The position numbers and the translations under genes were made by a program. The notes under the pieces were generated by a model that had not been told where the DNA came from, made no database searches, and saw only the letters and a list, made by a program, of their open reading frames with translations. From Myxococcales bacterium (GTDB taxonomy: Bacteria > Myxococcota_A > Polyangia > Haliangiales > Haliangiaceae), in assembly GCA_016794525.1 (NCBI GenBank), contig JAEUJY010000151.1, positions 1 through 60,285 on the forward strand: a stretch of DNA of 60,285 nt, given 5' to 3'. This document shows positions 39,523-48,036 of this stretch, piece after piece. How positions within the stretch are numbered: the first letter of the stretch is position 1; every line of letters starts with the position of its first letter.

Positions 39523-39775
39523 GGGCATCTCCTTGGTGGCGCCTTCGACGCGCGCGCGCCCCGAGCGGTTACCAGGCGATCGTCGCGGGCGGCGGGCGCC
39601 GCGGGGCGGCTCGCCCCCAGCTCGGCCGGCCGCGGGGCCCGGATCGGGGGGCGCGGCCCCCGCTGGACTCGGATGCGTTCGGAGGCTGTGTTTCCCGTCG
39701 ATCTAGCCTACGCTGCCCGCGCCCGCGCCCGAGTTCGTCGCCGCGGGCATGTTCCCCGATACCGATGAGAGCCAC

Positions 39776-40159
39776 ATGAGCACCCGACTGTACGTAGGCA
39801 ACCTTTCCTTCAACACCTCCAGCGAGACGATCCGGGAAGAGTTCTCGGCGCTGGGCGAGGTCACCGACGTGCACGTCGTGATGGACCGCGAGACCGGCCG
39901 CCCGCGCGGCTTCGCGTTCGTCACCATGGGTTCGCCGGCCGAGGCGCAGAAGGCGATCAGCGAGATGAACGGCAAGATGCTCGACGGTCGGCCGCTCCGC
40001 GTCAACGAGGCCGAGGAGCGCGCGCCGCGCGGCGGTGGCGGCGGCGGTGGTGGCTACGGCGGCGGTGGCGGCGGCTACGGCGGCGGCGGCGGTGGCCGCG
40101 GCGGCCGTGGCGGTGGTGGTGGCGGCGGTGGCGGCGGTCGCGGCGGCGGCCGCTACTAG
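39776..40159 (+). CDS. Glycine-rich RRM RNA-binding protein
   Basis: A 127-residue single-RRM protein of the bacterial/plant-like Rbp type. RNP2 is LYVGNLSF and RNP1 is RGFAFVTM, with all four strands present in residues 1-80. The tail (residues 83-127) is nearly pure Gly with Arg and Tyr, as in cold-inducible RNA chaperones. The ATG at 39776 starts directly at the domain. The 253-base region before it (39523-39775) is divergent from the fasciclin gene and shows no other feature. Downstream is a strong hairpin, then the tRNA island. Confidence 0.9.
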   Translation: MSTRLYVGNLSFNTSSETIREEFSALGEVTDVHVVMDRETGRPRGFAFVTMGSPAEAQKAISEMNGKMLDGRPLRVNEAEERAPRGGGGGGGGYGGGGGGYGGGGGGRGGRGGGGGGGGGGRGGGRY

Positions 40160-40222: not shown

Positions 40223-40243
40223 GTTGCGTTTCGGGCTGCGCGG

Positions 40244-40316
40244 TACCCACGGTGGGAGTCGAACCCGCCCTCCCCGGGGTGAAAAGCCGGGATCCTGACC
40301 GCTGGACGACGTGGGC
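40244..40316 (-). tRNA. tRNA-Glu(TTC)
   Basis: Acceptor GCCCACG/CGTGGGT, D arm GTCC/GGAT, anticodon loop CTTTTCA on a CCCGG-type stem, T loop TTCGACT, discriminator A. One C-A mismatch in the T stem. Last gene of the island, directly before the terminator hairpin. Confidence 0.85.
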
Positions 40317-40320
40317 GCAG

Positions 40321-40388
40321 TGCCGCCGGGCGGAATCGAACCGCCTCACCAGGCTTCGGAGACCCGGGTCGCATCCGTGCGCGGGGGC
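40321..40388 (-). tRNA. tRNA-Arg(CCG), short D arm
   Basis: 68 nt. Anticodon loop CTCCGAA on stem CGGGT/GCCTG, T arm GGCGG-TTCGATT-CCGCC. The acceptor GCCCCCG/CGGCGGC has one C-C mismatch, and the D arm is a mini-hairpin CGCA/TGCG with a 4-base loop. Function uncertain. Confidence 0.65.
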
Positions 40389-40402
40389 GTGACGTGACGT
40401 GG

Positions 40403-40475
40403 AGCCGACCGAGGGAGTCGAACCCTCCTCTCTCCCGTACCAGGGGAGCGTGTCCACCAGGAGCACCGGGTCGGC
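40403..40475 (-). tRNA. tRNA-Thr(GGT)
   Basis: Acceptor GCCGACC/GGTCGGC fully paired, anticodon stem CTCCC/GGGAG with loop CTGGTAC, T arm GAGGG-TTCGACT-CCCTC, discriminator T. Canonical U33. Confidence 0.85.
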
Positions 40476-40516
40476 GTGGTGTCGGGCGTGGACGGCGCAG
40501 GCCGTCCACCGTGTCG

Positions 40517-40588
40517 AGCGTCTGCCCGGAGTCGCACCGGGTTGAATGCGGGTTGCAATCGCATGCCTCGCTGATCGGCCACAGACGC
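40517..40588 (-). tRNA. tRNA-Cys(GCA)
   Basis: Acceptor GCGTCTG/CAGACGC paired, discriminator T as expected for Cys, anticodon loop TTGCAAC. The T loop is TGCGACT (G55 instead of U55). Confidence 0.8.
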
Positions 40589-40602
40589 AGAGATCGTGAT
40601 CG

Positions 40603-40673
40603 TGGACTCGGGGGGACTCGAACCCCCATCGCCGCCGTGCGAGGACAGCATCCTGCCTTTGAAAGACGAGCCC
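40603..40673 (-). tRNA. tRNA-Ala(CGC)
   Basis: The acceptor GGGCTCG/CGAGTCC contains the G3-U70 pair that marks alanine tRNAs. Anticodon loop CTCGCAC, normal T loop TTCGAGT. The D arm pairs poorly. Confidence 0.75.
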
Positions 40674-40686
40674 GAGATCGAAGCAG

Positions 40687-40760
40687 CGGCCCTGAAGGGA
40701 ATCGAACCCTCCTAGATACTCATAGACAGTGAGCCAACGTCGCCAGACGTACCCAGGGCC
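40687..40760 (-). tRNA. tRNA-Asp(GTC)
   Basis: Acceptor GGCCCTG/CAGGGCC with discriminator G (Asp identity), anticodon stem GCTCA/TGAGT and loop CTGTCTA, T loop TTCGATT. Looks functional. Confidence 0.85.
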
Positions 40761-40794
40761 AGAAAAAGAGACGAACGACGGATCGTGACGATCG

Positions 40795-40865
40795 TGGAAC
40801 CGGAGGGAGTCGCACCCTCGTCGCTGGTCTGCCGAGCCAGCATTCTCCTGTTGAACTACGGCCCC
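40795..40865 (-). tRNA. tRNA-Ala(GGC), C33 and G55
   Basis: Acceptor GGGGCCG/CGGTTCC with G3-U70. Anticodon loop TCGGCAG has C33. T loop TGCGACT. Same body as the Val(CAC), Ala(TGC) and Val(GAC) genes next to it, so these arose by duplication with anticodon change. Confidence 0.75.
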
Positions 40866-40877
40866 GTATCTCAGTCG

Positions 40878-40948
40878 TCGGGCTGGAGGGAGTCGCACCC
40901 CCGCCGCTGGAATGTGAGACCAGCATTCTGCTGTTGAACTACAGCCCG
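40878..40948 (-). tRNA. tRNA-Val(CAC), G55
   Basis: Acceptor CGGGCTG/CAGCCCG perfect, D arm GTTC/GAAT, anticodon loop CTCACAT (U33), T loop TGCGACT. The anticodon stem has a T-T pair next to the loop. Confidence 0.78.
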
Positions 40949-40959
40949 TCTCTGCTCGT

Positions 40960-41030
40960 GGAAACCGAAGGGAGTCGCACCCTCATCACTGGTTTGCAAG
41001 ACCAGGGTTCTCCTGTTGAACTACGGCCCC
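40960..41030 (-). tRNA. tRNA-Ala(TGC), G55
   Basis: Acceptor GGGGCCG/CGGTTTC with G3-U70, anticodon stem CTGGT/ACCAG with loop CTTGCAA (U33), T loop TGCGACT. The discriminator reads C rather than the usual A. Confidence 0.78.
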
Positions 41031-41039
41031 GTATCGTCG

Positions 41040-41110
41040 TGAGGTCGGAAGGAATCGCACCTTCGTCGCCGGCATGTCGGACCGGCACTCTGCTCCTGAG
41101 CTACGACCCC
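41040..41110 (-). tRNA. tRNA-Val(GAC), C33 and G55
   Basis: Acceptor GGGGTCG/CGACCTC, D arm GCTC/GAGT, anticodon stem CCGGT/GCCGG with loop CCGACAT (C33), T loop TGCGATT, discriminator A. Confidence 0.78.
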
Positions 41111-41114
41111 GTCG

Positions 41115-41201
41115 CGGAAGGAGGGGGACTCGAACCCCCAACGCCGGTTCTACGGCGCACGCAGTTAGCACCTGCGCTCCTCGTCCTGCCGGACTCCTTC
41201 C
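41115..41201 (-). tRNA. tRNA-Ser(GCT)
   Basis: 87 nt class II tRNA: acceptor GGAAGGA/TCCTTCC, anticodon stem CGCAG/CTGCG with loop GTGCTAA, long variable arm GCGCCG/CCGGCG, T loop TTCGAGT, discriminator G. First of three Ser genes in a row. Confidence 0.85.
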
Positions 41202-41217
41202 AAGAAAGCACGCGCGG

Positions 41218-41300
41218 CGGAGGAGGGGGGAGTCGAACCCCCAGACCATGGCTGATCACGATTTTCGGGACCGTTGCCCTCACCGATAGGCAGCTCCTCC
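41218..41300 (-). tRNA. tRNA-Ser(CGA), C33
   Basis: 83 nt class II: acceptor GGAGGAG/CTCCTCC, anticodon stem ACGGT/ATCGT, loop CCCGAAA (C33), long variable arm, T loop TTCGACT, discriminator G. Confidence 0.8.
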
Positions 41301-41337
41301 AGAGACGGCGCGGGCGCGCCGGATGCGGTCGTCACAG

Positions 41338-41428
41338 CGAAGGGAGAGGGAGTCGAACCCGCAAGGCACCTCGCGGTGCTCACGCTGCTTTCTAGGCAGG
41401 CGCCGTCGCCACGTCGGCTTGTCCCTTC
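41338..41428 (-). tRNA. tRNA-Ser(AGA)
   Basis: 91 nt class II: acceptor GAAGGGA/TCCCTTC, loop CTAGAAA giving anticodon AGA, long variable arm GCACC/GGTGC, discriminator G. A34 outside Arg(ACG) is rare in bacteria. Confidence 0.8.
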
Positions 41429-41522
41429 AGTCGAAGCGAGGGCGCGGCCCCCCGCCCGGGCGGCCGCGGCCGACGGTGCATCATCCGTCGACCGGGCCGA
41501 CCCTCATCCCACCGTCGCCCGT

Positions 41523-42074
41523 TCACGCTGCCTCCGGATCGGCGTCGATCTCGCCGGTCCAGTACAGGTAGTCACGCCACGCGTCGGGCACCGAGCGCGT
41601 GCTCACCCGGATCGTCACCGCCGGCACCCAGGTCGGCCGCACCGGCTGCGCGCGCAGCTTGAGGCCGGCCTCGCTCGGCGTCCGGTTGCCCTTGGCGCCG
41701 TTGCACGGGTAGCAGCAGGTGACGATGTTCTCCCACGTGGTGCGGCCACCGCGGGCGCGCGGGATCACGTGGTCGTAGGTGAGCTCCGCCAGCGTGCACC
41801 GGACGTTGCAGTACTGGCAGCGGTAGCCGTCACGCGCGTAGATGTTCACGCGCGAGAACTTGACGGGCTTGGCGTGCCGACGGAACGCGCGCAGCAAGCG
41901 CACGACCGCCGGGGCCTTGATGACGAAGGAGACCGCCTTGATCTCGGCGTCGTACTCCTCGATGACCTCGACCTTGCCGAGGGTGAGCAGCGTGATCGCG
42001 CGCTGCCACGAGATGACCTTGATCGGCTCGAAGCCCTGCGACAAGAGCAGGGTCCGGTTCGCCACGTGACTCAT
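41523..42074 (-). CDS. HNH endonuclease inside the tRNA island
   Basis: A 183-residue HNH nuclease of the McrA-like, zinc-stabilised type common in myxobacteria. An N-terminal part (MSHVANRTLLLSQGFEPIKVISWQRAITLLTLGKVEVIEEY) precedes the nuclease: CQYC, YDHVIPRARGG (catalytic His), NIVTCCYPCN with the second CxxC. ATG 42074 has AAAGGA about 10 bases upstream. It lies between Ser(AGA) and Leu(GAG) in the tRNA orientation. It could drive mobility of the tRNA block as a homing-type nuclease, but chromosomal HNH genes of this family also occur elsewhere, so this is open. Confidence 0.85.
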   Translation of the reverse strand: MSHVANRTLLLSQGFEPIKVISWQRAITLLTLGKVEVIEEYDAEIKAVSFVIKAPAVVRLLRAFRRHAKPVKFSRVNIYARDGYRCQYCNVRCTLAELTYDHVIPRARGGRTTWENIVTCCYPCNGAKGNRTPSEAGLKLRAQPVRPTWVPAVTIRVSTRSVPDAWRDYLYWTGEIDADPEAA

Positions 42075-42160
42075 TGCGGTCGTTTCCTTTCGCCGGAGTT
42101 CGAGACAGGGCGCGGGCCGGCCGCCGCGCTCCATCGGCCCACACCGTGTGGGCAAGTTCG

Positions 42161-42234
42161 TGTCGCCGAGAGGATTCGAACCTCCACTGGGTGACTTCTC
42201 GAGCCACCGACTCTGCCAGTTGGTCTACGGCGAC
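42161..42234 (-). tRNA. tRNA-Leu(GAG)-like, short variable loop, C33
   Basis: Acceptor GTCGCCG/CGGCGAC, anticodon stem GTGGC/GTCAC with loop TCGAGAA (C33), T loop TTCGAAT. The variable loop is only about 5 nt, although bacterial Leu tRNAs normally have a long arm. Confidence 0.7.
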
Positions 42235-42252
42235 GTGACGTGATCGTGATCG

Positions 42253-42326
42253 TGTCCCCGGCGGGATTCGAACCCGCGCTGCGCGAGGTTTGAGCTCGCC
42301 GACTCTGCCGGTTGGTCTACGGGGGC
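42253..42326 (-). tRNA. tRNA-Leu(CAA)-like, short variable loop
   Basis: Anticodon stem GCGAG/CTCGC with loop CTCAAAC, T arm GCGGG-TTCGAAT-CCCGC. The acceptor GCCCCCG/CGGGGAC has one C-A mismatch. Class I variable loop despite a Leu anticodon. Confidence 0.72.
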
Positions 42327-42330
42327 GTCG

Positions 42331-42407
42331 TGTCCTCGGTGAGATTCGAACTCACACTGCCCAGGTTCTGAGGCTGGTGACTCCTGCCAAGGTTGGTCTA
42401 CGAGGAC
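42331..42407 (-). tRNA. tRNA-Leu(CAG)-like, short variable loop
   Basis: Acceptor GTCCTCG/CGAGGAC perfect, enlarged D loop, anticodon loop CTCAGAA, T arm GTGAG-TTCGAAT-CTCAC, discriminator A. Class I variable loop as in its two neighbours. Confidence 0.75.
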
Positions 42408-42425
42408 GAAAAGGGCCTGGCGGCG

Positions 42426-42553
42426 CCACGCACCGGATCGCACGTGCAATCGCGATCCCCAACCGCGCGCTCGGTGATCCTCCTCCTGCGGCCCGCGGGT
42501 CGGGGGACGACCCGCGGGGCGAAGAACGGACGAGGCGCCGATCCGGTGCGTGG
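42426..42553 (-). ncRNA. Candidate structured RNA 1, closed by 15-bp stem
   Basis: CCACGCACCGGATCG (42426-42440) pairs perfectly with CGATCCGGTGCGTGG (42539-42553). Inside, CCGCGGGTCG/CGACCCGCGG forms a second strong hairpin, flanked on the minus strand by TCGCCC and GGGCCGCAG, the core of the repeated element found inside nearby tRNAs. With a Ro60 gene 2.4 kb away, a Y-RNA-like role is possible. Confidence 0.5.
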
Positions 42554-42570
42554 AGCCAGGAAAACGTAGC

Positions 42571-42705
42571 TTCTGATGACGCGGCGGGCTTCCAGCTACA
42601 CTCGCGGCAGACGGCCACGTGCTCGATAACCCTCGCTCACCGGCCCGCCGACGGTCGCCCGTCGGCGCGCGACCTGGACGAGGACGTCCGCGCACGCCAT
42701 CAGAA
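42571..42705 (-). ncRNA. Candidate structured RNA 2, closed by 8-bp stem
   Basis: TTCTGATG (42571-42578) pairs with CATCAGAA (42698-42705), with further pairing inward. The minus strand inside carries GGGCCG followed by GAGGGTTATCG, again the repeated core. It directly precedes Pro(CGG) at 42708. No T arm or tRNA shape is visible. Confidence 0.4.
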
Positions 42706-42707
42706 AG

Positions 42708-42779
42708 TCAGGGTGGCAGGACTTGCACCTGCAGCCACTCGGTCCCGAACCGAGCAATCTACTATTGAAATACACCCTG
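42708..42779 (-). tRNA. tRNA-Pro(CGG), G55
   Basis: Acceptor CAGGGTG/CACCCTG, anticodon stem CTCGG/CCGAG with loop TTCGGGA (U33), T loop TGCAAGT, discriminator A. Weak D arm. Confidence 0.8.
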
Positions 42780-42781
42780 GG

Positions 42782-42855
42782 AGTGATCGACGGGACTCGC
42801 ACCCGCTAGGACGAGGGTCACGGCCTCGCGCCTCGACGACTTCGGCCTCGATCAC
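42782..42855 (-). tRNA. tRNA-His(GTG)-like, C33 and G55
   Basis: Acceptor GTGATCG/CGATCAC perfect, anticodon stem CGAGG/CCTCG with loop CCGTGAC (C33), T loop TGCGAGT. The His-specific extra G-1 and C73 are not seen (discriminator T). Confidence 0.7.
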
Positions 42856-42857
42856 GG

Positions 42858-42928
42858 TCCGCCCGGGAGGAATCGCACCTCCATCACTCGGTTATCGGCC
42901 AAGCGCTCTGCTGTTGAGCTACGGGTGG
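42858..42928 (-). tRNA. tRNA-Ile(GAT), C33 and G55
   Basis: D arm GCTC/GAGC, anticodon stem CTTGG/CCGAG with loop CCGATAA (C33), T loop TGCGATT. The acceptor CCACCCG/CGGGCGG has one A-C mismatch. Confidence 0.75.
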
Positions 42929-42995
42929 GAAAGGCGCGCCGTCCGCCCGCGGGACGAGCCGGTGGTCCGGCCCGCGGGCGGCGGTTGGCGCGTTG

Positions 42996-43069
42996 TAGGG
43001 GTGGTCGGAATTGCACCGACGGCCTCATGGTCCCGGACCATGCGTTCTGGCTGCTAGAACTACACCCCT
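42996..43069 (-). tRNA. tRNA-Pro(CGG), second copy, C33 and G55
   Basis: Acceptor AGGGGTG/CACCCCT perfect, D arm GTTC/GAAC, anticodon stem CATGG/CCATG with loop TCCGGGA (C33), T loop TGCAATT. Confidence 0.78.
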
Positions 43070-43080
43070 GGAAGCGTGCG

Positions 43081-43213
43081 CGCAGATGACCGGATTCGAA
43101 CCGGCGGCCACTGGCTTGGAAGGCTGTAACCATCTCGCTGCGGCCCACGGCGGACCGCGGGCGAGGATCGTGAGACGGGTTTTTACAGTGCTCTACCGCT
43201 GAGCTACATCTGC
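43081..43213 (-). tRNA. tRNA-Gly(TCC) interrupted by 61-nt insert
   Basis: Acceptor GCAGATG/CATCTGC, D arm GCTC/GAGC, T loop TTCGAAT. After the third base of the anticodon stem (CTG) a 61-nt insert occupies 43125-43185. Removing it restores CTG-GC, which pairs perfectly with GCCAG around loop CTTCCAA. The insert starts and ends with complementary bases and contains CCGTCTC/GAGATGG. Confidence 0.75.
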
Positions 43214-43242
43214 GTGGCGGTGCCCCGGCGGGCGCCGCGTCG

Positions 43243-43315
43243 TAGGGGTGGCCGGAATCGCACCGACGGCCTCACGGTCCCCGACCGTGCGTTCTCACTA
43301 CTGAACTACACCCCT
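43243..43315 (-). tRNA. tRNA-Pro(GGG), C33 and G55
   Basis: Acceptor AGGGGTG/CACCCCT, anticodon stem CACGG/CCGTG with loop TCGGGGA (C33), T loop TGCGATT. Nearly the same body as the Pro(CGG) gene at 42996. Confidence 0.8.
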
Positions 43316-43325
43316 GAAGAAGTCG

Positions 43326-43451
43326 TGCAGGTGGCCGGACTCGAACCGGCATCTGATTGATTAAGAGTCAATAACCATCCAGCAGCGGCCCGCCTCGCGA
43401 CGGGCGAGGGACGCGAGACGATGATCTGCTCTACCGTTGAGCTACACCCGC
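43326..43451 (-). tRNA. tRNA-Lys(CTT) interrupted by about 53-nt insert
   Basis: Acceptor GCGGGTG/CACCTGC, D arm GCTC/GAGC, anticodon loop CTCTTAA, T arm GCCGG-TTCGAGT-CCGGC. The insert at 43371-43423 lies between the D arm and the anticodon arm; joining GAT to TGA gives a six-pair stem with TCAATC. A second, uninterrupted Lys(CTT) lies at 47447. Confidence 0.75.
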
Positions 43452-43465
43452 GAAGGAAGCATGCG

Positions 43466-43586
43466 TACAGGCGGCTGGAGTCGAACCAGCGTCACTTGAT
43501 CCCACATCAAGAACCATCTCCCAGCGGCCCGGTGACGGGCGAGGGATCGCGAGACGGAAAGTGTCCTGCCGTTAGACGACGCCTGC
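43466..43586 (-). tRNA. tRNA-like gene interrupted by about 50-nt insert, anticodon unclear
   Basis: Acceptor GCAGGCG/CGCCTGT, D arm GTCT/GGAC, T arm GCTGG-TTCGACT-CCAGC. The anticodon stem CTTGA/TCAAG encloses loop TGTGGGA, which reads TGG (Pro) with an abnormal G33; GTG (His) would need a shifted loop. The insert (43509-43558) follows CTT, which is repeated at its other end. Confidence 0.6.
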
Positions 43587-43610
43587 GTGAGGCCGGCGGA
43601 GCCGGCGCGG

Positions 43611-43697
43611 TCGGGGTGATTGGAGTCGAACCAATGAGACCGGTAACCATCCATGTGCGGCCCGTGGCCGGGCGAGGAGGTACAGATGGGCACCCCG
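43611..43697 (-). ncRNA. tRNA-like minihelix with embedded repeat element
   Basis: Acceptor CGGGGTG (43691-43697) pairs with CACCCCG (43612-43618), and the T arm ATTGG-TTCGACT-CCAAT is intact. Only about 55 nt lie between them, mostly the CTCGCCCG...CGGGCCGC...GGTTACCG element. No room is left for normal D and anticodon arms, so it cannot decode. Confidence 0.55.
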
Positions 43698-43702
43698 AGA
43701 AG

Positions 43703-43772
43703 TCGCAGCGGAGGGAGTCGAGCCCTCCTCGAAGCGGATATGAGCCGCTCGTCCTCGCCCGAGGTCGCTGCG
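43703..43772 (-). tRNA. tRNA-Met/Ile2(CAT)
   Basis: Acceptor CGCAGCG/CGCTGCG, anticodon stem AGCGG/CCGCT with loop CTCATAT. C1-G72 is paired, so it is not a typical initiator; Met or Ile2 cannot be separated by eye. T loop CTCGACT (C54), small D loop. Confidence 0.75.
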
Positions 43773-43822
43773 TGGCCCGACGCGTGGCGCGCCGGGGCGT
43801 GTCGTGCGTGTCGTGCGTGTCG

Positions 43823-43892
43823 TGCCACCGGAAGGACTCGAACCCTCGCCAGCGACGTTCGTAGCGTCGTGTCCCATCCTCGGGACGGTGGC
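43823..43892 (-). tRNA. tRNA-Arg(ACG)
   Basis: Acceptor GCCACCG/CGGTGGC, D arm TCCC/GGGA, anticodon stem CGACG/CGTCG with loop CTACGAA, T loop TTCGAGT. Canonical U33; A34 is normal for this Arg isoacceptor. Confidence 0.85.
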
Positions 43893-43910
43893 CTGTCGTG
43901 CGCGTGTTGG

Positions 43911-43976
43911 CACACCGCCAGGGAATCGAGGCTCTGCGTCCGAGGGTGACGCGGAGGCCCGAGCTGGCGTCGATGC
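43911..43976 (-). pseudogene. Degenerate tRNA, Arg(CCT)-like
   Basis: The 3' acceptor strand matches that of the Trp gene next to it, and an anticodon-like arm GCGTC/GACGC holds loop ACCCTCG (anticodon CCT, C33). The T stem does not pair (AGAGC against CCCTG) and the acceptor is irregular. Probably a decayed copy; the 5' boundary is approximate. Confidence 0.4.
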
Positions 43977-43986
43977 GTCGCGGTCG

Positions 43987-44057
43987 CACACCGCCAGGGA
44001 ATCGAACCCTGCGTCGTGGGTTTTGGAGGCCCAGCCCGGCGCCAGCCGGTGCAGTGC
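43987..44057 (-). tRNA. tRNA-Trp(CCA)
   Basis: Acceptor GCACTGC/GCGGTGT with discriminator G (Trp identity), D arm CCGG/CCGG, anticodon loop CTCCAAA, T arm GCAGGG-TTCGATT-CCCTG. U33 present; one C-A pair next to the loop. Confidence 0.8.
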
Positions 44058-44093
44058 ATGGACGTCGCGCGCCGTCGCCGGCTGCGCGCGTGG

Positions 44094-44163
44094 TGCCACC
44101 GGGAGGACTCGAACCTCCGTCATCGACGTTCGCCACGTCGTGTTCCATCCGTGGAACGGGGGC
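44094..44163 (-). tRNA. tRNA-Arg(GCG)-like, G33
   Basis: Same body as Arg(ACG) at 43823: D arm TTCC/GGAA, anticodon stem CGACG/CGTCG, but loop TGGCGAA gives anticodon GCG with G33. The acceptor GCCCCCG/CGGTGGC has one mismatch. GCG is not normally used in bacteria. Confidence 0.65.
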
Positions 44164-44204
44164 AGGTGTACGCGGCCGCCTGACGGCCGGAGGTACGGGT
44201 TGCG

Positions 44205-44422
44205 GGCGAGTCGCCACCGCGAGCGGTGGCGGGGTCTCGACGTCGGTGGCGTCCGCACCGACGAGGTCAGGCTCGTCGGCCGTTGACACGCGCCGGCCAC
44301 CTTCGAGGAGGTGCGCCCGGCGCTTCGCTGACTCGGTCGCCCGAGTGTCGCTACCTTAGGCCCGTTATAGTTACGGTAACCGACGTCTACCGGCCCGAAC
44401 GATCGGCGTCGCCGCCGATCAT
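44205..44422 (-). ncRNA. Structured region with a 23S rRNA helix 69-71 copy
   Basis: On the minus strand, 44348-44374 matches 26 of 27 bases of the very conserved 23S rRNA domain IV segment (GTAACTATAACGG then CCTAAGGTAGCGA). CGGTAGACGTCGG just upstream also resembles 23S CGGTAAACGGCGG. Strong hairpins surround it: GATCGGCG/CGCCGATC (44401-44420), CCGACGAG/CTCGTCGG (44258-44279), CGCCACCG/CGGTGGCG (44212-44231). No open frame or tRNA is present. Whether it is one RNA is not known. Confidence 0.5.
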
Positions 44423-44424
44423 CG

Positions 44425-44497
44425 TGCGCCTGGGGGGAATCGAACCCTCCATATCCGGTTTGAGGGACCGGGGGACTGACCATTGTCCGACAAGCGC
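44425..44497 (-). tRNA. tRNA-Glu(CTC), C33
   Basis: Acceptor GCGCTTG/CAGGCGC, D arm GGAC/GTCC, anticodon stem CCGGT/ACCGG with loop CCCTCAA (C33), T loop TTCGATT. One mismatch in the T stem. Confidence 0.8.
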
Positions 44498-44510
44498 AGA
44501 AAAAACTTCG

Positions 44511-44693
44511 CCTCTTCAGGTTCACGCCGCGCAACCCGCCCGACCGCCCCGCGCCACCCGGGAGGTGTTCGCCTCCTCAGGTTCACGCCGCGCAACCCGC
44601 CCGACCGCCCCGCGCCACCCGTGAGGTGTTCGCCTCCTCAGGTTCACGCCGCGCAACCCGCCCGACCGCCCCGCGCCACCCGTGAGGTGTGCG
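44511..44693. repeat. Three tandem 61-base repeats
   Basis: Unit starts lie at 44511, 44572 and 44633, each reading CCTCNTCAGGTTCACGCC... through CCACCCGNGAGGTGT. The copies differ at only a few bases; the third runs on into TGCGGACAGCCGTC, which leads to the double hairpin at 44716. A diverged single copy precedes the double hairpin at 47195 as well. Confidence 0.85.
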
Positions 44694-44715
44694 GACAGCC
44701 GTCTCGGAAGGAGGA

Positions 44716-44765
44716 CCCGGCGGGGGCATGACCCCGCCGGGGGAAGGTTTGGCGACAAACCTTCC
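44716..44765. repeat. Abutting double hairpin, copy 2
   Basis: CCCGGCGGGG-GCATGA-CCCCGCCGGG (44716-44741) is directly followed by GGAAGGTTT-GGCGAC-AAACCTTCC (44742-44765). Stem bases differ from the other copies but remain paired, while loop GGCGAC is constant. It lies just past the 3' end of tRNA-Asn in the minus direction. Confidence 0.8.
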
Positions 44766-44775
44766 AGTAGTTCAG

Positions 44776-44847
44776 AGGGCCCGGCGGGACTCGAACCCGC
44801 ACCCAACCGGTTAACAACCGGCCGCTCGACCGTTGAGCTTCGAACCC
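44776..44847 (-). tRNA. tRNA-Asn(GTT)
   Basis: Acceptor GGGTTCG/CGGGCCC with two G-U pairs, D arm GCTC/GAGC, anticodon stem GCCGG/CCGGT with loop TTGTTAA, T arm GCGGG-TTCGAGT-CCCGC. The discriminator reads T. Confidence 0.85.
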
Positions 44848-44923
44848 AGATCGCCGGTGGAGGCTGGGACATCCACCGGCGCATGCGTGTTAGGCGGCCC
44901 CGCGCGGGCCCGATCGTCGCCGA

Positions 44924-46561
44924 TCAGGCGCGCGCGAAGTCGCTGATGACCGCCGGCGTCGCCGTGTCGAAACCGACCACGTCGAGCATGCCGGCATCGT
45001 TCGGGTCAGCGATGCTGAACCCGTTCGAGGTCATCCCCACCACCACCACCTTCGCCGCGATGCCACGCGCCTGACGGTACGCGCGGATCGCCTGCGCCGG
45101 GTGCACGCTCCCGGCCCACGTCTCGCTGTCCGTGTAGATGACGAAGGTATCGACATCCACGCGGTTGCGCTCGGCCCACAGCATGGGCAGCGCGCAGTCG
45201 GTGCCACCGAAGGGCAGCCCGTCGACGGCCTTGCAGACGTCGTCGAGCCGCTGCCGCGGCGAGATCGCGAGCGGGCGCAGGCCCGACTCGCCGCCGCCGT
45301 ACTGGCCGCCGTAGCCACCGGCCGCGGCGGTGAACGCCACGAACTGGTGGTCGCGCTCGGTGGCCGCGGTGATCAGCGCCATCGCGGCGCTGCCGATCCG
45401 CGGCGTCAGGCCCGGCACCCCGGCGATCGTGCCCGAGGTCATCGAGCCCGACACGTCGAGGGCGAGCAGCGTGCGCTTGCCGCTCGGCTCGACCGCCTTG
45501 AACGCCTGGTAGAACGCGCCGTCGAGGGCATCGACGACCGCCGCCACCGGTGCCCAGGTGCCGCCGCCGCGCGCGCCGTGACCGCTCTTGTACGTGGTCA
45601 GGGCCGCCAGCACCGCGACCGGATGGACGCGCGCCTTCTTCAGGCGCGCCTCGTCACCCAGCCGCGCCACCACGGTCTTGGCCGCGTCGCTGCCGGCCTT
45701 GAGCAGGCCGACGCGCGTCATCGTCGCGAGGTTGCGGATCATGGCCGTCATCGGCATGTCGGCCAGGAGCGCGTCCCAGATCTCGGCGAAGGTCAGCCAC
45801 GTGGTCGGGACCGCCTCGCGCGGGATGCGGTGCTCGCGCACCAGCGCCGCCGCGCGCGCGACCTCGTCGACGCGCTTGAGCTCGTCGGCCGCGCTCAAGA
45901 GCTGCAGCGCCTGGTCGGCCTTGGCCTCGTCGGTCAGCGCGCCGCTGGTCACCCAGGCGAACAGCCGATCGTGCGAGGGCGAGGCCGCGCGCGGGTGCGC
46001 GAGGCGCAGGAGGTCACGGGTCGACCAGCCGTCGCGGCTGCCGTACTTCACGAGCTGGTAGGCCAGATCGCGGGCCGGCTTGTCGTTGAACCAGGCGGCG
46101 ACCGCCTTGCGCATGCCGCGACCCCAGCCGCCGAAGCCCTGCGCGTACTCGGCGAAGTGCATCAGCTGGGTGCCGGTGCGGCACACGGCCGGCAGCGCGG
46201 CGTAGGCGGCCTTGCGGGTCGCCTCGTCGCCGAGCTTCGCGCACATCGCGAGCGCGAAGATCGCCGGGTCGGTCTTGGGCGCGCGGCCCTCGGTGGCGAC
46301 CGCGACGATCGTGTTGACCACGCGGACGCCGTCCTCGGCGATGCAGCGCTGCACCGCGGCGGCGTTCTCGACGGTGAGCTTGGCCTCCTTGATGTAGTAG
46401 GTGCCGCCCTCGCTGCCGAGGATCAAGAAGCGATCGAGCCGCACCCAGTCGGTGACGGCCCAGGTGAAGCCGCCGGCCGAGTTCGCGACCTGGTTGGTAC
46501 CGGGGATCGCCTGCGCCTGCGGAGTGGTGAGGGTCGAGTAGTGCTTGGTGAACTTGAACAT
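44924..46561 (-). CDS. Ro60-like TROVE domain protein with vWA domain
   Basis: This 545-residue protein is a bacterial Ro60 (Rsr-like) homologue. The TROVE module (residues about 20-370) is a ring of helical repeats (RFLILGSEGGTYYIKEAKLTVENA is the hallmark). The vWA domain (about 375-545) has an intact MIDAS: DVSGSM, a Thr in GGTDCALPMLW, and Asp in YTDSETWAG. Ro60 proteins bind misfolded RNAs and Y RNAs and guide RNA quality control. ATG 46561 has GGAGG eight bases upstream. It lies inside the island between Thr(CGT) and Asn(GTT), in the tRNA orientation, with a 58-base gap to the tRNA upstream. Confidence 0.92.
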   Translation of the reverse strand: MFKFTKHYSTLTTPQAQAIPGTNQVANSAGGFTWAVTDWVRLDRFLILGSEGGTYYIKEAKLTVENAAAVQRCIAEDGVRVVNTIVAVATEGRAPKTDPAIFALAMCAKLGDEATRKAAYAALPAVCRTGTQLMHFAEYAQGFGGWGRGMRKAVAAWFNDKPARDLAYQLVKYGSRDGWSTRDLLRLAHPRAASPSHDRLFAWVTSGALTDEAKADQALQLLSAADELKRVDEVARAAALVREHRIPREAVPTTWLTFAEIWDALLADMPMTAMIRNLATMTRVGLLKAGSDAAKTVVARLGDEARLKKARVHPVAVLAALTTYKSGHGARGGGTWAPVAAVVDALDGAFYQAFKAVEPSGKRTLLALDVSGSMTSGTIAGVPGLTPRIGSAAMALITAATERDHQFVAFTAAAGGYGGQYGGGESGLRPLAISPRQRLDDVCKAVDGLPFGGTDCALPMLWAERNRVDVDTFVIYTDSETWAGSVHPAQAIRAYRQARGIAAKVVVVGMTSNGFSIADPNDAGMLDVVGFDTATPAVISDFARA

Positions 46562-46619
46562 GGCGAACCTCCGGCCCGGGGAATGCGGGCAGTGAGTACG
46601 GTTGCGAGACAACGGTGAG

Positions 46620-46692
46620 AGCCAGACGGGAGAATCGAACTCCGGACATCCGCTTACGGGGCGGCGCCTCGACCCATCGAGGGACGACTGGC
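46620..46692 (-). tRNA. tRNA-Thr(CGT), C33
   Basis: D arm CCTC/GAGG, anticodon arm CCGC/GCGG with loop CCCGTAA (C33), T loop TTCGATT, discriminator T as in Thr(GGT). The acceptor GCCAGTC/GTCTGGC has one T-T mismatch. Confidence 0.75.
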
Positions 46693-46699
46693 GAGAGAC

Positions 46700-46945
46700 A
46701 CAGGCGAAACCCGTGGGCGAGGATCGGCACCGAGGGGGGTACTTTTCGACGGTAACCCTCACGCCTTCGGCCCACCGGCGGCGCAAACGTGGGTCCACGG
46801 GCGAGGTGACGACCGAGGGAGGGTCGTTATCGGCGATAGCCCTCGGTCAGCGGCCCGCGGAGCTGCGCGTCGCCGGGCGAGGTCGTGGCCGAGGGGGATC
46901 GTTCGTAGCGGTAACCCTCGGCCGGCGGCCCGGCGATGTCGCGTT
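46700..46945 (-). repeat. Three tandem structured elements (75-83 nt period)
   Basis: On the minus strand the pattern GGGCCG, 3-5 bases, then GAGGGTTACCG (or GGGCTATCG), then CCCTCGG or similar, then ACCTCGCCCG is repeated three times. Each unit can form hairpin CCGAGGG/CCCTCGG and hairpin CGCCCG/CGGGC. The same GGGCCGC core occurs in the inserts inside tRNA genes at 43125, 43371 and 43509. Confidence 0.7.
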
Positions 46946-46947
46946 GG

Positions 46948-47018
46948 AGTGGCTCGCGGGATTTGCACCCGCACGATCAGGGTGGAGGCCTGAGCTGCTG
47001 CTGTTACATCAGAGCCAC
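46948..47018 (-). tRNA. tRNA-Gly(TCC)-like, C33 and G55
   Basis: Acceptor GTGGCTC/GAGCCAC perfect, anticodon stem TCAGG/CCTGA with loop CCTCCAC (C33), T loop TGCAAAT. The D arm does not pair well; discriminator T. Confidence 0.7.
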
Positions 47019-47194
47019 GAGTCCGTTCGTATGACGCACCGTCTCGCCCTTCACGCTCACCGGTCACGATCACCGTCGAGGTGCACGGTGCACGGTTCAG
47101 GTTCACGGTTCCCGGTTCAGGTTCCCGTGCGAGCACCCGCCCGGTCGGCGCGCGCCACCCGGGAGGTGTGCGGACAGCCGTCCTGGAGGGGAGG

Positions 47195-47244
47195 CTCGGC
47201 GGGGGCATGACCCCGCCGAGGGGAGGCTCGGCGACGAGCCTCCC
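47195..47244. repeat. Abutting double hairpin, copy 3
   Basis: CTCGGCGGGG-GCATGA-CCCCGCCGAG (47195-47220) is directly followed by GGGAGGCTC-GGCGAC-GAGCCTCCC (47221-47244). It lies just past the 3' end of tRNA-Gly(GCC) in the minus direction, as copy 2 does for tRNA-Asn. Confidence 0.8.
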
Positions 47245-47253
47245 TGAAACGCG

Positions 47254-47324
47254 AGCAGATGGCGGGAATCGAACCCGCGATCCCGGTCTGGCGAACCGGT
47301 GTGTCACCACAACACTTCACCTGC
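47254..47324 (-). tRNA. tRNA-Gly(GCC), C33
   Basis: Acceptor GCAGGTG/CATCTGC, D arm GTGT/ACAC, anticodon stem CCGGT/ACCGG with loop TCGCCAG (C33), T arm GCGGG-TTCGATT-CCCGC. Confidence 0.82.
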
Positions 47325-47446
47325 GGCGGTGGGCCCGTGCGTCTGGAAGCGCGTGATCGGCGGATCACACACCTCGTGGAGCGCACGAGACACCTGACGA
47401 GTCATCGGGGCGGTCGGCGGACGTCGCGCCACGACACTCGCTAGCG

Positions 47447-47521
47447 TGAGCCGGGTGGGAATCGAACCCACGTCGGGACGGTTTAAGAAACCGCTGCAAA
47501 GCCAACGTTTGCTACCAGCTC
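47447..47521 (-). tRNA. tRNA-Lys(CTT), uninterrupted
   Basis: Acceptor GAGCTGG/CCGGCTC, D arm GCAAA/TTTGC, anticodon stem GCGGT/ACCGT with loop TTCTTAA (U33), T arm GTGGG-TTCGATT-CCCAC, discriminator A. All canonical positions are present. Confidence 0.88.
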
Positions 47522-47550
47522 GAGTACGGCATGCTTCTCCTCGGAAGCGG

Positions 47551-47623
47551 CCCCACTCTCTGGAATCGAACCAGAATCCTCCGGGTTTCGGCCGGCCGCG
47601 TAGACCACATACGCTAGAGTGGG
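47551..47623 (-). tRNA. tRNA-Phe(GAA), C33
   Basis: Acceptor CCCACTC/GAGTGGG, D arm GCGTA/TACGC, anticodon arm CCGG/CCGG with loop CCGAAAC (C33), T arm TCTGG-TTCGATT-CCAGA, discriminator G. Confidence 0.8.
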
Positions 47624-47826
47624 AGAGAGCCTCGGCGCCCCGCGATCGGGAATCGCGGCGACGCCGGGGATGAGCCTCGCGCGGATTACGGCCGCGCGAG
47701 CTCGTTTGCTGGGCGCCGTGCAAGGGCGCCCACGTCGTTCGTCTCTTCAGTTGTCAGGGATCGGCGTCGTCGGGGAGGCCGCGGGCACACCTCGGGCGTG
47801 ACCGCGTCCCGTCGAGGACGCAGCAG

Positions 47827-47899
47827 TACCGGACCCAGGAGTCGAACCTGGAGTTTTGCGGGTCAGAGCCGCCTGTCTTGCCGATTAGACGAGTCCGGT
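47827..47899 (-). tRNA. tRNA-Gln(CTG)
   Basis: Acceptor ACCGGAC/GTCCGGT, D arm GTCT/AGAC, anticodon arm GCGG/CCGC with loop CTCTGAC (U33), T arm CCAGG-TTCGACT-CCTGG, discriminator A. The 203 bases between it and Phe hold no recognisable feature. Confidence 0.85.
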
Positions 47900-47952
47900 A
47901 GACTCGATTGCTTGTGCGTGTCGCGAGGGCGAGAGGCCCTCAGATGCAGGCG

Positions 47953-48036
47953 TGGGACGTCCAGGAATCGAACCTGGCTGGTGTTGGACACATCGATTTT
48001 ACGGACCGCCTCGCCTCCATAGCGAGCTACCGTCCC
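47953..48036 (-). tRNA. tRNA-Tyr(GTA), C33
   Basis: 84 nt class II with long variable arm GTGT/ACAC, anticodon arm CGGT/ATCG with loop CCGTAAA (C33), T arm CCAGG-TTCGATT-CCTGG, discriminator A. The acceptor GGGACGG/ACGTCCC has one mismatch next to the D arm. First gene of the island. Confidence 0.78.

What the first reader, a model, noticed from the sequence alone, without database searches (positions are those of the whole stretch)
43125..43558. Related 50-61 nt structured inserts interrupt three tRNA anticodon stems
Gly(TCC), Lys(CTT) and the tRNA at 43466 are each split after about the third base of the anticodon stem. All inserts share, on the minus strand, CGTCTC, CTCGCCCG, CGGGCCGC and GATGGTT, and two can pair CCGTCTC with GAGATGG. 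In Gly, removing the insert restores a perfect stem. They are far too short for group I introns and sit in the stem, not the loop. This may be a new kind of tRNA intron or a tRNA-borne RNA domain.
Basis: partly seen in the sequence, partly recalled or inferred. Interest (0 to 1): 0.85.

Follow-up and report, generated by a model that had tools for sequence, protein, structure and literature searches.

The report
Ro60-binding Y stems inside tRNA-like genes
The 'inserts' in these bacterial tRNA genes are most likely copies of the RNA stem (Y RNA) that the Ro60 protein grips, set into the anticodon stem of tRNA-shaped RNAs next to the Ro60 gene; they are probably Ro60 guide RNAs and not a new kind of intron.

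Summary
Related 50-61 nt hairpins interrupt the Gly, Lys and 43466 tRNA genes, and a fourth copy (43642-43689) was missed. A covariance model finds them in this 9.8-Mb genome at E<0.01 only in the tRNA array that also encodes a Ro60/TROVE protein. In 58 copies from several phyla the hairpin covaries strongly. It has the anatomy of a Y-RNA Ro60-binding stem: CUUG/CUCG facing (bulged C)CGA, an upper stem, then UUAUC, the loop motif of animal Y RNAs and nematode sbRNAs. Similar modules lie within 1.2 kb upstream of Ro60 in 24 of 33 loci outside this bacterial family. So the inserts are most likely Y-RNA stems in tRNA-like RNAs. The topology is the mirror image of the known bacterial Y RNA YrlA: YrlA is a permuted tRNA inside a linear Y RNA; here a closed (permuted) Y hairpin sits inside a normally ordered tRNA, also in Brocadia, Chloroflexi and Thiotrichaceae. 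The intron reading is not supported: no tRNA endonuclease gene was found in 28 genomes, no constant splice point exists, some relatives lack an anticodon arm, and six of 18 retained loops carry A34 anticodons. Yet those 18 loops keep U33 and nearly all R37, so excision is not excluded.

The parts
43082..43213 (-). tRNA-Gly(TCC)-like gene carrying a Y stem between positions 29 and 30 (insert 43125-43185)
   Evidence: acceptor 7/7 and T-stem pairs intact; module E 2.7e-10; joined stem CTGGC/GCCAG
43327..43451 (-). tRNA-Lys(CTT)-like gene carrying a Y stem (module 43370-43421)
   Evidence: module E 5.1e-12; anticodon arm can form with 0-1 base from the 5' half
43467..43586 (-). third tRNA-like gene (loop anticodon TGG) carrying a Y stem (module 43509-43557)
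   Evidence: module E 4.7e-12; CTT|GA / TCAAG
43611..43699 (-). fourth, previously missed: tRNA-like RNA with acceptor and T arm only, Y stem (43642-43689) in place of D and anticodon arms
   Evidence: module E 6.9e-10; no D arm found; six bases between module and T stem
44927..46561 (-). Ro60/Rsr (TROVE + vWA) protein, the likely partner of the Y stems
   Evidence: TROVE 8e-46, Ro60 vWA 2e-62; PDB 1yvp (Xenopus Ro) 7e-162, 2nvo (Deinococcus Rsr) 6e-160
46866..46941 (-). linear Y-RNA-like hairpin 1 upstream of Ro60 (9-bp lower stem TCGCCGGGC/GCCCGGCGA, 9-bp upper stem, GUUACC)
   Evidence: fold; overlaps module hits
46792..46865 (-). linear Y-RNA-like hairpin 2 upstream of Ro60
   Evidence: fold; module hits 46835-46895 (2.9e-10) and 46751-46819
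46706..46780 (-). linear Y-RNA-like hairpin 3 upstream of Ro60, with GCCGAAGG
   Evidence: fold
42426..42553 (-). 128-nt RNA-like element with a 15-bp terminal stem and a weak Y-type module inside (42473-42535)
   Evidence: terminal stem CCACGCACCGGATCG; relative L022 has CCACGAACCGGATCG with the matching change on the other side; module E 0.0022
42625..42684 (-). further module copy outside a recognisable tRNA
   Evidence: E 0.004; E 2.1e-6
41523..42155 (-). HNH endonuclease gene inside the tRNA array
   Evidence: HNH_5 2.3e-15; a homologous HNH-type ORF in the L039 array
40242..48036 (-). tRNA array hosting all of the above

Best explanation
Each insert is a Y-RNA Ro60-binding stem, closed as a hairpin and set into a tRNA-shaped RNA, usually in the anticodon stem near position 29/30. 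The RNA made from such a gene is a tRNA-like body with natural tRNA ends plus a handle for the Ro60 protein encoded 1.3 kb upstream (5' on the transcribed strand). Most likely it is not spliced. RNase P and 3' tRNA processing cut it at the tRNA ends; Ro60 binds the bulged lower stem; the tRNA-like body (acceptor, D and T arms and often an anticodon arm) acts as the effector part, as the tRNA-like part of YrlA does, to tether an enzyme such as PNPase or to imitate tRNA toward tRNA-handling enzymes. Shown here: the conserved covarying structure, the Y-type motif, linkage to Ro60 in several phyla, the tRNA frame and retained anticodon loops. Inferred: binding by Ro60, processing at the tRNA ends, absence of splicing, and effector function.
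For: Own-genome hits with E<0.01 lie only in the Ro60 array; in 15 of 30 family genomes the module occurs, mostly on the Ro60 contig. In 24 of 33 Ro60 loci outside the family (Methylobacterium, Rhodospirillales, Chloroflexi, Brocadia, Thiotrichaceae and others) a module lies within 1.2 kb upstream of Ro60, whereas about one chance hit was expected in the whole search. Fifty-eight copies: 93.9% of cells paired against 81.6 +/- 0.8 in shuffles, covariation 0.427 against 0.212 +/- 0.011, and 34-56% when slid. Anatomy matches Y RNAs: lower stem with one bulged C and a UUAUC motif after the upper stem (PMC4726728, PMC4450293). In Chloroflexi locus L117 tRNA-Y genes sit beside a linear RNA that scores just under the cut-off of the nematode sbRNA family RF01656 (37.4 bits, cut-off 38) and weakly with Deinococcus Y RNA, aligning the same CCGAAG, GGUUAUC and CUUG-CCCG blocks. 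Tandem tRNA-Y genes in the window give a sub-threshold YrlA match (30.5 bits) spanning the 3' half of one and the 5' half of the next, as expected of a circular permutation; YrlA is circularly permuted relative to tRNA (PMC11472068). The protein is a full-length Ro60 homologue. In several relatives the Y stem sits on the anticodon stem with no anticodon loop (L112-13971, L105-12305) or in the D loop with a tetraloop for anticodon arm (L141-9729), so no tRNA could result.
Against: No binding or expression data. No Rfam Y-RNA family reaches its gathering score here; the copies inside window tRNAs read CCUCG/CCGC where the broad consensus is CUUG/CCGA. Retained anticodon loops are unexpectedly canonical (U33 18/18, R37 17/18), which a pure Ro60 ligand would not need.
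Confidence: 0.77

Rival explanations
1. The hairpins are true introns: an endonuclease removes the Y-like hairpin and a ligase such as RtcB joins the halves, giving a working tRNA (and perhaps a free Y hairpin).
For: The halves are co-adapted: 61 of 84 pairs at 27-29/41-43 against 35.6 +/- 3.6 in shuffles. Seventeen of 18 genes with a 19-nt second-half segment restore 5/5 stem pairs for some boundary, with U33 18/18 and R37 17/18. RtcB is present in 22 of 28 genomes, two copies here, and lies beside Ro60 in the array of G031.
Against: The boundary that works differs: three bases from the 5' half in Gly, L101, L143 and L118, two in L158 (two genes) and L161-1128, one in L120. The PF01974 tRNA endonuclease is absent from 28 genomes while the control archaea ring. 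Six of 18 loops have A34 triplets (ACC, ATG, ATT, AAG, ATC), unusual for bacterial tRNAs (own knowledge). Joined Gly and Lys bodies resemble chromosomal Val and Thr tRNAs as much as their cognates. The chromosome already has Gly(TCC), Lys(CTT, TTT) and Pro(TGG). Related genes have the same module with no anticodon loop to restore.
Confidence: 0.13
2. In the tandem part (43.3-43.7 kb) the mature units are cut inside the hairpin loops, so that the 3' half of one gene and the 5' half of the next make a classical YrlA, as in tandem YrlA-like repeats of a Gordonia phage.
For: YrlA match spanning 43519-43395; tandem Y-type repeats with long junction loops in the Gordonia phage upstream of Ro and long-loop modules in Methylobacterium.
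Against: The Gly copy stands alone between ordinary tRNA-Pro genes, and Brocadia L118 and Thiotrichaceae L120 have a single copy each; acceptor stems pair 7/7 across the module in these genes. X3 and 43642 have very short hairpin loops.
Confidence: 0.06
3. The inserts are remnants of a small mobile element that broke redundant tRNA genes.
For: Several related copies in one array of redundant tRNAs; some hosts are degenerate.
Against: No copies elsewhere in the 9.8-Mb genome; compensatory changes across 58 copies; retained pairing between tRNA halves; association with Ro60 in several phyla.
Confidence: 0.02

Closest known systems
YrlA (bacterial Y RNA with tRNA-like domain; Rfam RF02553; PDB 6CU1)
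   Same: A Ro60-binding stem joined to D, T and acceptor arms of a tRNA; CUUG facing CGA in the stem; encoded next to Ro60.
   Different: YrlA is a linear Y RNA holding a circularly permuted tRNA; here the Y stem is a closed hairpin (itself permuted) inside a tRNA with its natural order and ends. Many copies also keep an anticodon arm, and several isoacceptor-like bodies are used in one array.
Vertebrate Y RNAs and nematode stem-bulge RNAs
   Same: Lower stem with a single bulged C, upper stem, UUAUC just after the upper stem (PMC4726728, PMC4450293).
   Different: Those are linear RNAs without a tRNA body.
Archaeal/eukaryotic tRNA introns (bulge-helix-bulge, EndA)
   Same: Short structured inserts in tRNA genes, including non-canonical positions.
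   Different: No EndA homologue found, no constant exon boundary, and the same module occurs outside tRNAs.
Long tRNA arrays with HNH genes and the Anabaena trn operon
   Same: Clusters of about 30 redundant tRNA genes.
   Different: The arrays studied here carry Ro60 and Y-RNA genes.

Membership tests
Y RNA (Ro60-binding RNA) | Lower stem with a single bulged C and conserved CUUG / (C)CGA strands | tested here: met
   the pair G-C next to the bulged C in 55 of 58, C/U-G at the next pair in 58 of 58, U-A or U-G at the third in 39 of 57; window tRNA copies have CUCG/CCGC, lacking the third pair
Y RNA (Ro60-binding RNA) | Upper stem followed by UUAUC | tested here: met
   (GUUAUC or GUUACC in most copies); motif described in PMC4450293 and PMC4726728
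Y RNA (Ro60-binding RNA) | Encoded close to a Ro60/Rsr gene | tested here: met
Y RNA (Ro60-binding RNA) | Binds Ro60 | not testable with these tools
   no binding data; the partner is a full-length Ro60 homologue
Y RNA (Ro60-binding RNA) | Reaches the Rfam gathering score of a Y-RNA family | tested here: not met
   YrlA at most 30.5 bits against 69; expected if the stem is permuted, but the formal test fails
YrlA | Linear Y stem at the RNA ends enclosing a circularly permuted tRNA domain | tested here: not met
   acceptor 5' and 3' strands pair across a closed Y hairpin, i.e. normal tRNA order
Archaeal-type tRNA intron | tRNA-splicing endonuclease (PF01974) in the genome | tested here: not met
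   none in 28 genomes, controls positive
Archaeal-type tRNA intron | Constant boundary that restores the tRNA | tested here: not met
   needs 3, 2 or 1 bases from the 5' half, depending on the gene
Group I intron | Group I catalytic core, found in Rfam | tested here: not met
   no group I match; inserts of 50-61 nt

The most novel reading that the evidence does not exclude
The tRNA-Y genes are dual-use: the Y hairpin is cut out and handed to Ro60 while the two tRNA halves are joined (for example by RtcB), or the choice between the two is regulated, the insert's 3' tail and the 5' half competing for the same anticodon-stem strand. That would be the first protein-spliced tRNA intron in bacteria and would link Y RNAs to tRNA maturation.
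Probability: 0.12. Interest if true: 0.9.

Novelty: new variant of a known kind. Interest (0 to 1): 0.6.

Why it matters
Bacterial Y RNAs are known to imitate tRNA, but the known form (YrlA) is a circularly permuted tRNA. Here is the un-permuted counterpart: tRNA genes with natural ends that carry the Ro60 handle in the anticodon stem, in Myxococcota, Chloroflexi, Planctomycetes and Gammaproteobacteria. A row of such genes also contains YrlA-like units in the shifted reading (second half of one gene plus first half of the next), which suggests a simple route by which a YrlA could arise from tRNA genes. The conserved U33/R37 anticodon loops pose a testable question: bait for anticodon nucleases, target of modification enzymes, or a tRNA that is released.

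Tried and rejected
Archaeal-type splicing: PF01974 absent, no constant boundary, and no bulge-helix-bulge recognised by hand. Group I or another known ribozyme: no Rfam match on the inserts. The YrlA match at 43519-43395 was at first taken as a chance match to adjacent T and D arms; it became meaningful once the permutation was seen. 'Broken tRNA' or mobile element: rejected by genome-wide distribution and covariation. Searching for insert-free orthologues: in L030 and L032 (same genus) the whole gene is absent from the interval examined, so there is no simple empty site. Phage DNA search with the Gly gene: nothing. R2 in phage and plasmid Ro loci: no hit of note, although the Gordonia phage shows tandem YrlA-like repeats by eye. 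The paper most likely to contain precedents (Chen et al. 2014, RNA 20:1715) and three related papers were not held, so priority could not be checked there.

Full report
What is there. The window belongs to a 9.8-Mb, G+C-rich genome whose named relatives are Kofleriaceae-type Myxococcota MAGs. On the minus strand, 40.2-48.0 kb, lies an array of about 30 tRNA or tRNA-like genes with an HNH gene and a Ro60/TROVE gene. The chromosome carries its own high-scoring tRNA set, including Gly(TCC), Lys(CTT, TTT) and Pro(TGG), so the array is redundant for these.

The inserts. Gly, Lys and the third gene each contain a 50-61 nt hairpin, and a fourth gene at 43699-43611 contains another. The hairpin has a 6-7 bp outer stem (P1), an inner stem GCCCG/CGGGC, conserved CUC(G) and C(CG) flanks, and a tail GUUAUC/GUUACA. 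A covariance model from 11 copies finds, in the own genome at E<0.01, only six places, all in this array. In 30 family genomes 15 have hits, mostly on the contig that carries Ro60.

What the module is. An alignment-based search of genome contigs with the Ro60 protein gave 53 named loci. A second model (30 copies) hits immediately upstream of Ro60 in 24 of 33 loci outside this family, on the same strand, although the E-value limit of 1 would give about one chance hit in the whole search. Across 58 copies 93.9% of pair cells are standard, nine of 14 pairs change on both sides, and the covariation score is twice that of shuffles; slid versions fall to 34-56% paired. The alignment leans toward its own model, but the slid and shuffled controls are clear. 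The inner stem can be drawn as (CUUG or CUCG)-CCCG against CGGG-(bulged C)-CGA: one bulged cytosine and a U-A, U-G, G-C step beyond it. Y RNAs have a lower stem with a single bulged C that is needed for Ro60 binding (PMC4726728), and animal Y RNAs and nematode sbRNAs share a UUAUC motif at the start of the loop, just after the upper stem (PMC4450293, PMC4726728). The module ends in that motif. In Chloroflexi locus L117 two tRNA-embedded modules are followed by a linear RNA that scores 37.4 bits against a cut-off of 38 in the nematode sbRNA family RF01656 and weakly in Deinococcus Y RNA, with GGGCCGAAG, GGUUAUC and CUUGCCCG aligned. Upstream of Ro60 in the window are three tandem linear hairpins of the same type (46941-46706). 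I therefore identify the insert as a Y-RNA Ro60-binding stem with its loop and ends swapped: P1 faces the tRNA, and the strands that are the RNA ends in an ordinary Y RNA are joined by a short loop.

How it sits in the tRNA. An automatic parse (acceptor, D stem, T stem) found a tRNA frame around most array copies. Class A (module at about 29/30, anticodon arm kept) includes Gly and Lys here and genes in Brocadia (L118), Thiotrichaceae (L120), Chloroflexi (L141, L117) and other Myxococcota (L152-L161). Class B has the Y stem on top of the anticodon stem with no anticodon loop (for example L112-13971 CCAGG/CTTGG and L105-12305 GCGGT/ACCGC). Others lie in the D loop (L103-12659 and, from the sequence, L141-9729) or in a T stem (L116-16980), and some hosts lack the D arm (43642 here). 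Across 28 class-A-length genes, including some that do not parse cleanly, the bases before the insert pair with positions 41-43 in 61 of 84 cells against 35.6 +/- 3.6 when halves are shuffled (0 of 20,000). The insert's own last three bases also pair there more than shuffled (46 against 38.8 +/- 1.9; 4 of 20,000). So the arm can form with either partner, and a three-way junction needs no splicing.

Is it an intron? Removing the insert restores a full stem in 17 of 18 of the clearest genes, but only if the boundary is allowed to move: three bases from the 5' half in some, two or one in others. The archaeal-type tRNA endonuclease is missing from 28 genomes. Some hosts have no anticodon loop to restore. 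Six of 18 loops carry A34 triplets that bacterial tRNAs rarely use (own knowledge), and joined bodies are no closer to cognate tRNAs than to others. On the other side U33 is 18/18 and R37 17/18 (the genes are related, so the binomial P is only indicative), RtcB is common and lies beside Ro60 in one array (G031). I leave excision at about 0.13.

Most likely mechanism. By analogy with YrlA, whose basal stem tethers Rsr while its tRNA-like part binds PNPase and is a substrate of tRNA-modifying enzymes (PMC8394870), the chimeric RNA would be bound by the neighbouring Ro60 through the insert and present a tRNA-like body to a tRNA-handling enzyme. A bait role against anticodon nucleases has been proposed for YrlA (PMC7790460) and would give a reason to keep the anticodon loop here. 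These functional steps are inferred.

Relation to the known. YrlA is a circularly permuted match to tRNA (PMC11472068). The genes here show the opposite arrangement, tRNA in normal order and Y stem permuted. In the tandem stretch 43.3-43.7 kb Rfam's YrlA model matches across two neighbouring genes (30.5 bits, below its cut-off of 69), which shows how the two layouts interconvert. I could not read Chen et al. 2014, so an earlier mention of the un-permuted form cannot be ruled out.

Noticed in passing
window 42426-42553 (-): A 128-nt RNA-like element with a 15-bp terminal stem whose sequence covaries with the copy in the congener L022; it is followed by a conserved CCAGGCCCTTTTCGTCCTCGTAGACCAA.
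   Followed up: partly
window 40877-43315 (-): Several array tRNAs lack the D-loop GG and have TGCGA instead of TTCGA in the T loop (for example 42856, 42995, 43242), as if the D-T loop contact had changed on both sides.
   Followed up: no
L039 6913-8109 (G031): In a related family the array carries an RtcB ligase gene beside Ro60.
   Followed up: partly
L169 5600-5930 (Gordonia phage Cashline): Tandem YrlA-like repeats (GCGGGCCGGAGTTGATCGGTTACC, T arm, D arm) upstream of the phage Ro gene, apparently unannotated.
   Followed up: partly
window 39749-40159 (+): Glycine-rich RRM RNA-binding protein encoded next to the end of the tRNA array.
   Followed up: no
L139, L119, L149, L141: Ro60-linked tRNA arrays of 20-33 genes also in Bradyrhizobium, Dormibacterota and Chloroflexi; no Y module was found near Ro60 in L139 or L119.
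   Followed up: no
window 46612-46700 (-): A tRNA-like gene directly upstream of Ro60; relatives have tRNA-Thr(CGT) in that place.
   Followed up: no
L118 14989-15057 (-): A type II hammerhead ribozyme match about 10 kb from the Brocadia Ro60 gene (39.2 bits, cut-off 37).
   Followed up: no
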